Assembly: GCA_001584585.1 (NCBI GenBank)
Contig: LSYV01000022.1
Span: 651,035 to 715,034 of the forward strand
DNA: 64,000 nucleotides
Reading direction: 5' to 3'
Source: Gonium pectorale
Taxonomy: Eukaryota; Chlorophyta; Chlorophyceae; Chlamydomonadales; Volvocaceae
A program made the translations under genes and the position numbers. This document shows, one piece after another, positions 58,630 to 64,000 of the stretch. Within the stretch, counting starts at the first letter, position 1. Every line of letters begins with the position of its first letter. Below the pieces are notes generated by a model, which had not been told where the DNA came from, searched no databases, and saw only the letters and a program-made list of their open reading frames with translations.

Positions 58630-61600
58630 ATGAGGCAGATGCGTGACGTCTGTCGTCATTCGCCTCGCGCCGCTCGCTCCGCAGTCGTGTCGTCGTTGCC
58701 CACCATTCTGCCCTTCCGGCAGCTCCAGCTCTCGCGCTGCCTCACTGCGGCAGCTACAGCCGGCCAGTCCGGCTCGGCGCGCCGGGCAAGGGGCAAGAAG
58801 GGCTCCGAGGCGCCGCTGTCCACATCCCTCCCATTCCCGTCCGCTGGGCGCCCGGGCTCAGGCATCCATGCAAGCGACGGATCAGGCCCTGATGCAGGAG
58901 CGGGTTTGTTGACTGCAAATATGCAACAGGAGGTCCAGAGGCTGGAGGTTGCGCTGTCGCGTCACCGGGACTTGTACTACAACCGGCAGGCCGCCGAGAT
59001 CAGGTGTGCCATAGGACCGGCGTCGCAGCACAGAGCCATTGCACAGGAGGGTCATCTTGCAGTGCTTCCAGCTGGGCCGTGGGTCCGAACAGCGTCGGCG
59101 GCGTCTGGCGCCATGCGGCTTCGCGGGGCCGAGGACCCCAGGTGCCCTTACGCCTCAAGCACGTCACCTGCAGGCCACAGTGAGCTATCTGCTTCACACC
59201 TCAGGAACCCATCTGTAACTGCTGGCTCCACCTTGCAAGCCTGGAGGCCCCGCCTCCTGGCTCCTGCAAGCCAGCGCACCACCGCCTGCCGTAGGCTGTG
59301 CCTGACTCAGCTCCACCCTGCCACCCCCGCCCCGCCTGCTCCCGACAGCGATGCTGCCTTTGACGACCTGAAGCGCCGCTACCAGGCCCTGGCGGCACAG
59401 CTGCGCGGAGTGGCTGTCGATGAGGTGGCGCTGCCGGTGGTGAGCGGTGGTCACGGATCGCCATGGCGCCTGCTCCGTGCTTGTTCAGCAGCGCCTGCTC
59501 CACGCCTGTTCGGCAGCACGGGGGTTTAGGTCAGATCCTTCCTACGACGCCGCCTGCCCCCGGCTGGGGTACACACTGCAATAACACCTCCTGACGCGGC
59601 ACATGCTCCGAATGAGTGGGACTGCGTGTGCAGTGTAGCAGGCGGCGTGTGTGGCCCCGGTGTCTCACTGCGCTCGCATCGCTTGCGCGGCTCCCCACCA
59701 CCACGCCACACAGGGAGCGCCTGTGGGCGGCTCCTCGGGCCTCCGCAAGCTGCCCCATCGCGTGCCTATGCTGAGCCTGGCGGCCGTCAATAGCCGGGAG
59801 GAGACGGCCGCGTGGCTGGACAAGACAGTGGCCAGGCTGCAGGCTGTCCCAATCGCGCCGGGGGCGGACCCACGGGTCGGTGGCGCGGGCGCTGCCGCGG
59901 GCAACGCCGCCGCCGCGGCGCGGCGTCCCAGATGGGTCGTTGAGCCGAAGGTCGACGGGCTCGCCGTACGCGTGTTGTACAGCCGTACGGCAGACGGGAC
60001 GTACACTCTGGCTGAGGTGGGCGCGTGCTGTTGGGGCGGCCGTCCTGTAGCAAGGCTCGTTTGCCTGAAGGCTTGACGGGTCGCTGTCATTTGTTTGTTA
60101 ATTTGTTTGTTTGCATATGGCTGTTACTCGCTGCGCCCCCTGCTTGTCAGCAGCTGATGTTGTCAGCATCCGCCGTGCTCGTGCGTCCCGGCTGTGCTGC
60201 TCCGCCTGCTGCGGCGCCGCCTCGCCGCGTTTGCCAACCTGCAACTTGCGGCGGCGCCCCTCACCCAGGCTGCCACCCGGGGCGACGGCGCTGTGGGGGA
60301 GGACGTCACCCACAACGCCCTGCACGCTGCCATCTCCGGCCTGCCCGGCGCCTTCACAATCAGCCCGTGGACCAGCAACGGCGGCAGCGGCCCGGAGCGG
60401 GCGCACGGGCCTCCCTGGGTGGAGGTCCGCGGCGAGGTGTTCGTCCGGGCGGCAGACCTGGAGCAGGTGTATTGGGAATGAGGGCGGGTGTGCCCAATAC
60501 CACTGTAGCAGAGGGAACCAGGCGCAAAACAGACAAGCGGCCTAGCCGGCAGGCGCTTCAGCTCTAGGTGTGTGGCAGGGTAGTAGATTGGATTCCTGGC
60601 GTGCTGTGGTGGGGATACACCAGAGCGGTGAAGGAGAAGCGGTTTCTGATGACTTTGCTCATGCATGGCGTACCGGATCGCATGTGAGGGTGTTCGCTGG
60701 CACTCGGTGTCGGGGCTCGGTTCTGGGTTGCCTTGCGCGCACTCCGTAGCCGGAGTGCAGAGCGGCGGGGGCTTGCACAGCACATCGCAGCCCTGCGCCG
60801 CCGCCACACACTGGACTGCCCACAAGACTATGCCACACTTTGCATTATGCGCCTTTCTTCGCACTCATCGGCTACCCCTGCCCTCCGCCTTCCACCTTTT
60901 GCACCGCCTAGGTGAACTGCGAGCAGGCCGCAGCCGGCCAGGCGCCCTTCGCCAACACCCGCAACGCCGCCTCGGGTGCTCTGCGGCTGCTGGACTCGGC
61001 CGAGTGCCGCCGTCGCCGCCTCAGCTTCGTGTCGTACGCGGCCCTAGCGCCGCCGCCGTCGGCGGCTACGCCGCTGCAGGTCCGTTTGGAGAGCGGGTCG
61101 GTGCCGGCTCCCGCGGCGGAGCCCGTTCATGCAAGCCACTGGGAGACACTGCAGTGGCTGGAGGTCAGTGACGGCTGTGCGGGGGCTCGCTGCTCTTTAG
61201 CGGTCGCGGTGAGCGGGTCTTTAGAGAAACCAGGGGCGATGTTCAGCAGCATAGCGATTCTATCTCCAACGTCCTGTCTCGTAACTAGTTTGTTCTTTCT
61301 TGTTGTCTTCTTACGGGGTGCTGTCTGCGTATGGGCCTCCGCTGTCCCTCGATGCTGTTCTCTTTCCCCAAGCATGCTTCTCGGACCTGGACCCCGCGTG
61401 GCTTCACTTGCAGGCTGCCGGCTTCGCCGTGAGCCCGGACAACGTGCTGTGCGACAGCCCGGAGGCGGCGCTGCGGGAGGCAGCCGAGTGGATGACCCGG
61501 CGTGACACACTGGGTGGGGGCGGGGCGGGAGGGGCGGGAGGGGCTTTCGCGTAGCAGGCCAAGCCCAGGGCGAGGCCTGGCGCGAGTCTGGGAGAAGCCG

Positions 61601-64000
61601 CACGAGGCGGAACTGCCCTGGCCTGGGATCCAGACCAAGACGCTATGCAAAGTCCAGCAAACAGCAGGATGCCAATGTTTCGCCCACAGAGTCTGTATCC
61701 TTGCCATACCATTTTATGTCCGCAATGTTATGCTCGCCCGCCGCGCTCAGGGTACGACGCGGACGGTGTGGTCGTGAAGCTGGACGACACTCGCTTGTAC
61801 GGGCCGCTGGGCACGGCCGGCTCCGACCCGCGCTGGGCTGTGGCGTGGAAGTTCCCCGCGGGCGAGGCGGTGACGCGGTTGCAGGGCATTGAGCTGACCG
61901 TGGGGCGGCAGGGGCAGGTCGGCAGCGGTGCGGGGAGTGGGGATTCCGGGGGGGAGCAGGGTGGGATGGGGAAGGCGGCAAGGCAGGACGTGGTTGGGTG
62001 GACGTGGAAGAGTGGGGGGCCGCAGCCGGGCAGGGCGAACGGGATGGGTGGGCGCAAGTTCCGCCCCTCTCCCGCGTCCCTACCTCGCGTTCCTCCCACC
62101 ACCGCGGGCCACCCGCGGGGCGTTCCAGCTGGGCTTCCTCCCAGCTGGTCTTCCTTGCAATGCCTCCCGAGTGGCGAAGCCGTAGCGTGAAGCACGCCCT
62201 AGCGCCCCCGGTTCCTCTAGTTGCCCCGCGTTGTGCCCATGTCCCGCCACCTTGTTCCCCTCCTCGCCAGATCACTCCCGTGGCGCTGCTGGAGCCGGTG
62301 GCGCTGGGTGGGGTGACCATCCGTCGCGCCACGCTGCACAACGTGGGGCGCGCGCTGGCGCTGGGGCTGCACGTCGGGGACTCGGTGGTGCTGCGCCGGA
62401 GCGGGGACGTCATACCGCAGGTGGGCGGCTCTCGCCTCTGCTGGTGGGCGCCGGCGCAGGATTGGTGTCATGAAAATGTCCAGTAGGGTGCTGGTCTGCG
62501 TACTGGCGTGGAGGCTTGGTATTTGCGGGTGGTGCTGTGATGGAGTGGAGCGGCTCTGCGGCAGAGGCGTCATGAGCCCAGCGCTCAATGGGACGCTCGG
62601 CTGCTTGCATGTGGGGAGGCCTGGATGTGCGGGCGTTTCTTTGCCGGAGTGGGCGCATTATGCCGCATACCACCCGAAGCGCCCATGTAGCGGTGCAGCG
62701 CCCTCCTCTTCCGCCCGGCGGGAATGGAGCCCTGGCTGCGTAGCACTGGGCAGGGCCACAGCGGGCGCGCTTGTCGCCTCCTGCAGACACGTCACTGCCC
62801 CCGGGCCACCGGACTGCAATACCATGGTGCCCTGCTGCCCTGCCGCTGCCCGCCTCCCTCCCTTCACACACACACACGCACGGGACATCACCCCTTCGAC
62901 TGCCTCTGGAGCTACGTCCTACAACGACGCCATCACTTTTGCGCTTACGCTCGTCGTATGCGTTTTCCTTTCAACACACACACGCACACACCGACGCCCT
63001 CCCTCCGCAGGTGCTGCGGGTGCTGCCCGAGCTGCGCCCCGCCGGCGCCGACCCCTGGCAGCCGCCCGCGGGCTGCCCCGCCTGTGGCGGCCCACTGCGG
63101 CTGCAGCCGGCGGCGGGGGCCGACGCGGGCGACCAGCTGGTGTGCGACAACCCGAGCTGCGGCGCGAGGAGCGGGCGGGAGGTGCGCTGAGGTGGCTGGC
63201 TGCGTGCGTGCGTGTGGCGGCTCCCGGAAGCGACCTCCCGAGGCAGGGGCGGCCGGCCGCACCCGGGATCCCACGAGGGGAAGCCGCTGCGCAGCGGTTG
63301 TCAGGGGCAGCGAAGAAGGGAACCGAGTCGGAACGCGGGGCGCCGAATCGCGCTGGGACGGGTCGAAATCTTGTGGCGGGCTCGGCAGAGTTGCAGGCGG
63401 CGGTCTGGGGCGGGCAGGAGCGTGGGCATGGCCCCTACCCTCGCCTCCCGCCCAGCCTTTCGACGCCCCGCTGGCCACCGCGCCTGCCATGAAGCAGCCC
63501 CCACGCATGCTCCCCCCGCGCCCCAAGTCAACAACGCCACGCCCTCAGACTGTTTGTTCCCCCCGCCCCCCGCCCCTCCCCTTCCCCCGGAAAGGCACGC
63601 GCGCAAAGTTTCCGTCCTGGACCTACACTCCCTAACTTCGATCCGCAGGGCCCGTCTGCATACTATCTTCGCTGCCTTAACCGGGTCAACCCCCATTGCC
63701 TGCACGGCCATACATGTCACTTGCGTGCTCGCAATCGGTGTTGAGCTCTTGTGCACCCTGTCTTTGCTGTACATGATACATGCCGCCCACACACCCTGCC
63801 CCGTCCAGCTGCTGCACTTCGCGAGTGTGTGCCTCAAGGGCAGCAACGTGGCGGGCAGCGCGGTGACGGCGCTGGTGGAGGCGGGGCTGCTGCGGAGCGT
63901 CCCCGACTGGTATAACCTGGACTGGGTAGGCGCCGGCGCGGGGTGTTGGCGGCGCGGGGTGTTGGCGGCGCGGGGTGTTGGGGGCGCGGGGTGTTGGGGG
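58630..64000 (+). CDS. ligA: NAD+-dependent DNA ligase (LigA type), 3' end outside window
   Basis: Seals nicked DNA using NAD+. Exons, all in phase: 58630-59003, 59349-59439, 59714-60016, 60269-60466, 60912-61163, 61414-61513, 61751-61917, 62271-62420, 63011-63181, 63809-63925, continuing right; 641 residues visible. About 95 Arg/Ser/Ala-rich residues look like an organelle transit peptide. Domain Ia follows ([21 protein letters not shown]; the usual Tyr-Asp is Phe-Asp). Then the nucleotidyltransferase: HRVPMLSL, catalytic lysine in EPKVDGLAV (about residue 234), [49 protein letters not shown]. The OB fold has GITPVAL-type [23 protein letters not shown] and SGDVIPQV. A four-Cys zinc finger lies at residues 567, 570, 590 and 595. 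The helix-hairpin-helix region starts ([16 protein letters not shown]); the rest and any BRCT lie beyond the edge. Bacterial-type ligases are rare in eukaryotes. Confidence 0.94.
63521..63567 (+). repeat. Dispersed repeat fragment in ligase intron
   Basis: AGTCAACAACGCCACGCCCT followed by C.GACTGT matches 10793-10833 with a few substitutions. It lies in the ligase intron between exons 63011-63181 and 63809-63925. Confidence 0.6.
63935..64000 (+). repeat. 16-bp minisatellite reaching the window edge
   Basis: Four copies of GGCGCGGGGTGTTGGC or its GG-ending variant stand head to tail and continue past the end. They lie at the start of the ligase intron after exon 63809-63925. Confidence 0.92.

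What the first reader, a model, noticed from the sequence alone, without database searches (positions are those of the whole stretch)
58630..64000. Bacterial-type NAD+-dependent DNA ligase in an intron-rich algal nuclear gene
All LigA nucleotidyltransferase motifs, the OB fold and the Cys4 zinc finger are present, spread over at least ten exons with normal algal splice sites and codon bias. This is therefore a resident gene, not contamination. Eukaryotic nuclear replication uses ATP-dependent ligases; LigA is essentially bacterial. The basic N-terminal extension suggests import into chloroplast or mitochondrion, pointing to an endosymbiotic or horizontally acquired organelle repair enzyme. The alga would then have an NAD+-driven organellar nick-sealing route.
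Basis: partly seen in the sequence, partly recalled or inferred. Interest (0 to 1): 0.78.

Follow-up and report, generated by a model that had tools for sequence, protein, structure and literature searches.

The report
Bacterial-type DNA ligase in green algae
A green alga (Gonium pectorale or a very close relative) carries, in its own nuclear DNA, a bacterial kind of DNA-sealing enzyme; the same gene is found in other green algae and in mosses and liverworts, and it may seal nicks in the DNA of their chloroplasts or mitochondria.

Summary
A ten-exon gene (58630-63925, +, all introns GT-AG) encodes 641 residues of an NAD+-dependent DNA ligase (LigA). Of 22 catalytic, NAD-binding and zinc positions checked, 20 are identical to E. 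coli and two carry substitutions common in bacteria. The C-terminal domains are unread: an 8,835-base run of N starts at the window's end. The sequence is Gonium pectorale or extremely close: 376 of 378 residues of GPECTOR_21g673 match. That public model omits the exon with the catalytic lysine.

The gene is not unique: ten named green algae (Gonium included) and seven named bryophytes carry it, and the green rows form one clade. No row named as a vascular plant was listed. A cyanobacterial origin is weakly rejected (AU p 0.026), an alphaproteobacterial one is not (p 0.069); Chloroflexota or Actinomycetota stand nearest, donor unresolved. The genome also holds ATP-dependent ligase loci.

Organelle import is likely but untested; plastid and mitochondrion cannot be told apart here. 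Published trees or tables already hold NAD+-ligases of Ostreococcus, Dictyostelium and Paulinella, so this is a new member of a known kind, most useful as a candidate for the plastid ligase that papers of 2014 and 2020 call unclear or unidentified.

The parts
58630..63925 (+). LigA gene as far as it can be read (first ATG to last exon in the window; 3' end in an N stretch beyond the window)
   Evidence: spliced frame of 641 codons; N from the base after the window
58630..59003 (+). exon 1: basic N-terminal extension (residues 1 to about 97) and start of domain Ia
   Evidence: composition; in-frame ORF opens at 58600
59349..59439 (+). exon 2: rest of the NAD-binding domain Ia motif (D126, F129, D130)
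59714..60016 (+). exon 3: motif I EPKVDG with nucleophile K234; missing from the public Gonium model
60269..60466 (+). exon 4: ATRGDG and motif III VRGEV
60912..61163 (+). exon 5: FANTRNAA (R339, R347); its end (residues 379-406) is missing from the public model
61414..61513 (+). exon 6: R436
61751..61917 (+). exon 7: motif IV DGVVVK and motif [10 protein letters not shown], start of OB fold
62271..62420 (+). exon 8: OB fold
   Evidence: PF03120 best stretch residues 481-556; whole-genome OB match here
63011..63181 (+). exon 9: Cys4 zinc finger (C567, C570, C590, C595)
63809..63925 (+). exon 10: start of the stretch that leads to the HhH domain; followed by a GT donor and then N beyond the window
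   Evidence: alignment with relatives

Best explanation
The gene is a nuclear-encoded LigA. It takes AMP from NAD+ onto K234, passes it to the 5' phosphate of a nick and seals the nick with the 3' hydroxyl (mechanism inferred from the kept motifs; recalled knowledge of the family). It entered the green lineage once, from a bacterium, before green algae and bryophytes parted (inferred from one clade), gained introns and a basic N-terminal extension, and most likely works in an organelle, plastid or mitochondrion or both, sealing nicks from bacterial-type replication and base excision repair. Nuclear nicks are left to the ATP-dependent ligases that the genome also encodes. Shown: gene structure, intact motifs, green clade. 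Inferred: activity, import, role.
For: Open spliced frame and codon bias; domain matches; functional positions; no gap at any of the nine exon junctions against Edaphochlamys (read); orthologues in ten named green algae and seven named bryophytes; one green clade at 100/100 and 100/99; basic N-terminal extension, 7 R/K to 1 D/E in 50 residues; ATP-dependent ligase loci in the same genome; Paulinella precedent with organelle-signal copies.
Against: No transcript, activity or localisation data. C-terminal HhH and BRCT unread. The public model skips the catalytic exon. Not all green N-termini look like presequences: the unnamed P0007 has 6, Physcomitrium 4, Volvox africanus 3 and Sphagnum 3 acidic residues in the first 50. 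In Arabidopsis and Cyanidioschyzon organelles are served by ATP-dependent ligases, so LigA is not needed in principle.
Confidence: 0.7

Rival explanations
1. Endosymbiotic gene transfer: the green LigA descends from the cyanobacterial ancestor of the plastid.
For: Organelle role is plausible; a donor close to bacteria is clear; the donor is not resolved.
Against: Green rows held with 12 cyanobacteria cost 46.4 log units, AU p 0.026; no cyanobacterium stands next to the green clade or 49 (splits). The 12 were chosen; three further rows of the phylum (L192, L202, L067) stood apart and were left out.
Confidence: 0.12
2. Mitochondrial (alphaproteobacterial) descent.
For: AU test does not reject it at 0.05 (p 0.069); some N-termini look mitochondrial by eye; an Ulva plastid LigA orf was reported closest to Rickettsia, a different gene.
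Against: Holding them together costs 40.4 log units; alphas form their own clade at 99/98 and 100/100 away from the green one.
Confidence: 0.15
3. The gene is decayed or makes an inactive protein by exon 3 skipping.
For: The public 378-residue model joins exon 2 to exon 4 in frame and lacks the catalytic lysine; the 3' end is unread.
Against: Exon 3 is open, has GT-AG sites and keeps motif I, as do all 13 green relatives aligned.
Confidence: 0.08
4. Bacterial or viral contamination of the assembly.
For: None found; a FastTree placed long viral branches near the green clade.
Against: Nine introns, codon bias, 1.42 Mb contig, orthologues in independent green genomes with the same architecture; in the mixture-model tree no viral row lies inside the green clade.
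Confidence: 0.01

Closest known systems
Bacterial LigA (E. coli, PDB 4glx and 2owo)
   Same: Domain Ia, adenylation, OB fold and Cys4 positions; 20 of 22 functional positions identical
   Different: Nuclear, ten exons read, about 97-residue basic N-terminal extension; C-terminal HhH and BRCT unread here
Green-plant nuclear 'DNA ligase (NAD(+))' entries (Edaphochlamys, Volvox, Chlamydomonas schloesseri, Physcomitrium, Marchantia and others)
   Same: Same gene by tree; relatives carry HhH and BRCT
   Different: Nothing that sets the Gonium gene apart was found, except its gap and its faulty public model
NAD+-dependent ligases of Ostreococcus lucimarinus and Dictyostelium in a 2009 tree (PMC2806865, section 6 read)
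   Same: NAD+-ligases listed for eukaryotes
   Different: Not in the trees made here; relation to this clade unknown
Paulinella nuclear ligA copies with chromatophore or mitochondrial signals (PMC7826189, PMC9450145, passages)
   Same: Nuclear NAD+-ligase genes with organelle targeting signals
   Different: Other supergroup; sequences not compared here
LigA-like orfs of Ulva plastid genomes (PMC4388391, PMC10151680, passages)
   Same: LigA in a green alga
   Different: Plastid-encoded, among foreign sequences; one reported with top hits in Rickettsia
Eukaryotic ATP-dependent DNA ligases (LIG1 type)
   Same: Nick sealing
   Different: Different family and cofactor; separate loci at C2 and C13 in this genome

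Membership tests
NAD+-dependent DNA ligase (LigA) | Adenylation domain with motif I K-x-D-G and motifs III, IV, V | tested here: met
   PF01653 178.8 bits; K234, D236, E312, D444, K449, K473
NAD+-dependent DNA ligase (LigA) | Domain Ia (NMN binding), unique to NAD+-ligases | tested here: met
   Y116, Y117, D126, F129, D130 at the five positions; Pfam PF22745 itself not reported at E 0.001
NAD+-dependent DNA ligase (LigA) | NAD-ligase OB fold | tested here: met
   PF03120 96.9 bits
NAD+-dependent DNA ligase (LigA) | Cys4 zinc finger | tested here: met
   C567, C570, C590, C595 align with the four E. coli cysteines; PF03119 not reported at E 0.001
NAD+-dependent DNA ligase (LigA) | HhH domain and BRCT | not testable with these tools
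   N from the base after the window; present in three relatives scanned
NAD+-dependent DNA ligase (LigA) | Curated whole-protein cut-offs | tested here: inconclusive
   NF005932 381.7 over 369; TIGR00575 368.7 under 444.45, with a query cut at the C-terminus
NAD+-dependent DNA ligase (LigA) | Uses NAD+, not ATP | not testable with these tools
   needs a purified protein
Plastid-derived (cyanobacterial) gene | Groups with cyanobacteria in a tree | tested here: not met
   AU p 0.026 against; weak, one model, group chosen after the first tree
Organelle-imported protein | Cleavable N-terminal presequence | tested here: inconclusive
   7 R/K and 1 D/E in 50 residues; no predictor available
ATP-dependent eukaryotic DNA ligase | PF01068 / PF04675 / PF04679 domains | tested here: not met
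   Only two families, PF01653 and PF03120, reported for this protein at E 0.001

The most novel reading that the evidence does not exclude
Probability: 0.28. Interest if true: 0.65.

Novelty: new member of a known kind. Interest (0 to 1): 0.42.

Why it matters
Papers seen here call the plastid ligase of plants unclear (PMC3914683, 2014, passage; PMC4166229, 2014, passage) or the chloroplast ligase of base excision repair unidentified (PMC7761550, 2020, passage), and a 2019 review says that NAD+-ligases are known only from eubacteria (PMC6728418, passage). A nuclear LigA shared by green algae and bryophytes contradicts the last statement and gives a candidate for the first that can be tested by gene removal in Physcomitrium or Marchantia. 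The corrected gene model also recovers the catalytic exon missing from the public Gonium entry.

Tried and rejected
Contamination: rejected (introns, codon use, orthologues in independent green genomes). Viral origin: in the 432-row FastTree the green clade stood next to long viral branches at supports of 36-52; in the mixture-model tree with 8 viral rows three of them moved beside the alphaproteobacteria, one (L108) was a very long branch of unsure place and none lay inside the green clade, so the FastTree placement is read as long-branch attraction. Cyanobacterial origin: weakly rejected. Other frames of the window: 10 of the 54 stop-to-stop frames of 230 or more residues (listed) were scanned with Pfam, no match. 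Rfam on the window: none at the gathering score. Two frames after the N stretch: no Pfam match at E 1, so neither the ligase end nor another gene was recognised there. The first splice model had three donor sites off by one base and was corrected. One search counted 196 bacterial rows, 56 of them entered twice and three genes held under two locus ids; one search recounts 138 distinct rows, and its numbers are used. No structure was predicted: similarity to solved LigA was already strong and a spliced protein may not be accepted.

Rows dropped: the careful trees used the window and 13 green proteins. Left out of them were Pleodorina, Riccia fluitans and Marchantia paleacea (all three were), P0001, P0006, P0015, the further Physcomitrium-like entries P0012, P0013, P0017, P0121, P0122, and Calypogeia and Sphagnum, found later. 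Of 224 bacterial and viral loci with a LigA frame, 64 were picked by hand for spread. The Chloroflexota test was chosen after seeing the tree.

Papers: ten searches of an open-licence library; listings seen in full except (15 of 100). Fifteen papers were opened, passages only, plus section 6 of PMC2806865. None of what was seen describes this green nuclear gene. A 2005 moss study (PMC1079823, passage) lists a bacterial-like gene called a homologue of DNA ligase III; whether it is this gene cannot be told.
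Full report
WHAT IS THERE. The window lies at C22:651035-715034 of a genome of 128.9 Mb in 352 contigs. Whole-genome searches with the LigA adenylation family (3 matches) and the OB family (1 match) report only this place. Ten exons joined at GT-AG sites give one frame open over 641 codons. Codon-position GC is 0.744, 0.573 and 0.856 against 0.651 in the introns, and the chance that 641 codons stay open at the introns' stop density is about 5e-5. No gap falls at any of the nine junctions in the alignment with Edaphochlamys (read). 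From contig position 715035 to 723869 (8,835 bases) the sequence reads N, so the end of the gene is not available; two short frames beyond it have no Pfam match.

THE ORGANISM AND THE PUBLIC MODEL. Residues 1-376 of the 378-residue Gonium pectorale protein GPECTOR_21g673 (P0001) match the model exactly in three blocks: model residues 98-155, 257-378 and 407-602. The public model therefore starts at M98 and lacks the N-terminal extension, lacks exon 3 with the catalytic lysine and the end of exon 5, and takes its last two residues from intron 9. Exon 3 is 303 bases long between phase-0 sites, so skipping it keeps the frame; whether such a transcript exists is not known.

IS IT A WORKING LIGASE? 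Of 22 positions that matter in E. coli LigA (their roles are recalled, the positions were mapped), 20 are identical in the window. Two differ: H23 is Y, as in 106 of 138 distinct bacterial rows, and Y35 is F, as in 19 of 138. All four zinc cysteines are kept. The LigA profile NF005932 is passed (381.7 against 369) although its positions after 472 of 664 have no counterpart to match; TIGR00575 is not (368.7 against 444.45), as may be expected of a cut query. Pfam's domain Ia and zinc-finger models were not reported. Solved bacterial LigA is matched at 1.9e-64. Activity itself is not shown.

WHO ELSE HAS IT. Three searches of the protein collection (120 rows listed each, candidates capped at about 8000, most rows without a name) list ten named green algae (Gonium, Edaphochlamys, Volvox africanus, V. 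reticuliferus, Chlamydomonas schloesseri, Pleodorina, Myrmecia, Tetradesmus, Monoraphidium, Scenedesmus) and seven named bryophytes (Physcomitrium, Sphagnum compactum, Marchantia polymorpha, M. paleacea, Riccia fluitans, R. sorocarpa, Calypogeia fissa). No row named as a vascular plant, C. reinhardtii or V. carteri is listed; with the cap and the many nameless rows this is not proof of absence. Several entries already bear the name 'DNA ligase (NAD(+))'.

WHERE IT COMES FROM. In a FastTree of 432 rows all 17 green rows form one clade (support 99). In maximum-likelihood trees with a site-mixture model the 14 green rows form one clade at 100/100 with 8 viral rows in the set (78 rows) and at 100/99 without them (70 rows). 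Bryophytes and chlorophytes separate inside it; one unnamed row (P0010) joins the bryophytes at 96/29 and 95/51. This fits one acquisition before these lineages parted. The nearest bacteria change with the set: three Chloroflexota with viral rows (78/93), three Actinomycetota without (42/49); a wider group of Chloroflexota, Actinomycetota and one Bacteroidota holds at 87/94 without viral rows. Holding green rows with 12 cyanobacteria costs 46.4 log units (AU p 0.026), with 12 alphaproteobacteria 40.4 (p 0.069); holding them with 3 Chloroflexota gives a likelihood 1.7 higher than the free tree (p 0.632). The 12 cyanobacteria leave out three rows of that phylum that stood apart, and the Chloroflexota set was also chosen after seeing the tree, so these tests are descriptive. 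Many rows have unusual composition. The donor is unresolved, and a plastid origin is not supported.

WHAT IT PROBABLY DOES. The genome also holds exons of ATP-dependent ligases at C2:2037160-2041331 (N, middle and C-terminal domains; a TGA lies inside the C-domain match) and at C13:1533666-1535689 (N domain over the cut-off with a TGA inside the match, middle domain under the cut-off). Six-frame matches ignore introns, so these stops are not evidence of decay. Nuclear replication thus need not use LigA. The window's protein has 7 R/K and 1 D/E in its first 50 residues; of twelve green relatives compared, four have no D/E there and others have up to 6. This favours import into an organelle for the volvocine copies but does not choose between plastid and mitochondrion. 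Paulinella offers a precedent, with NAD+-ligase copies bearing chromatophore and mitochondrial signals. In Arabidopsis LIG1 serves nucleus and mitochondria, LIG6 has a putative plastid signal, and in the red alga Cyanidioschyzon one ATP-dependent ligase serves plastid and mitochondria; these facts count against LigA being needed for plastids in general.

WHAT IS KNOWN. Section 6 of Yutin and Koonin 2009 (PMC2806865) lists Ostreococcus lucimarinus and Dictyostelium discoideum in the legend of its NAD+-ligase tree. Ulva plastids carry LigA-like orfs in foreign stretches. No paper describing this green nuclear LigA was seen in ten searches of the open-licence library and the passages read (calls named under tried and rejected).

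VERDICT. Surprise is moderate; its use lies in making the plastid-ligase question testable.

Noticed in passing
window 33490-33547: A 58-base stretch recurs at 41 other places of the genome at 86-100% identity (a lower bound: 40 of 191 candidates were scored). It looks like part of a dispersed repeat; it lies in the most AT-rich 2 kb of the window (GC 0.455).
   Followed up: partly
window 59714-60016 and public protein GPECTOR_21g673 (P0001): The public Gonium model skips this in-frame exon with the catalytic lysine, starts at M98 and ends in intron 9: a faulty prediction, or a real inactive splice form.
   Followed up: partly
window 63926-64000: The intron after exon 10 opens with direct copies of a GC-rich unit ending in GGTGTTG that run up to the N stretch (seen by eye; Tandem Repeats Finder at score 150 lists none).
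   Followed up: no
P0007 and P0010 (unnamed database proteins): Two nameless LigA proteins fall inside the green clade; P0010 sits at low support by the bryophytes and could be from a streptophyte alga.
   Followed up: no
viral contigs L132, L139, L143: Their LigA rows form a long-branched group (branch 1.52) beside the alphaproteobacteria at 100/98.
   Followed up: no
genome G034: One of 39 genomes drawn from the phylum of Spirulina (G001) shows no match to the LigA profile, and G040 only a partial one; incomplete assemblies may explain it.
   Followed up: no
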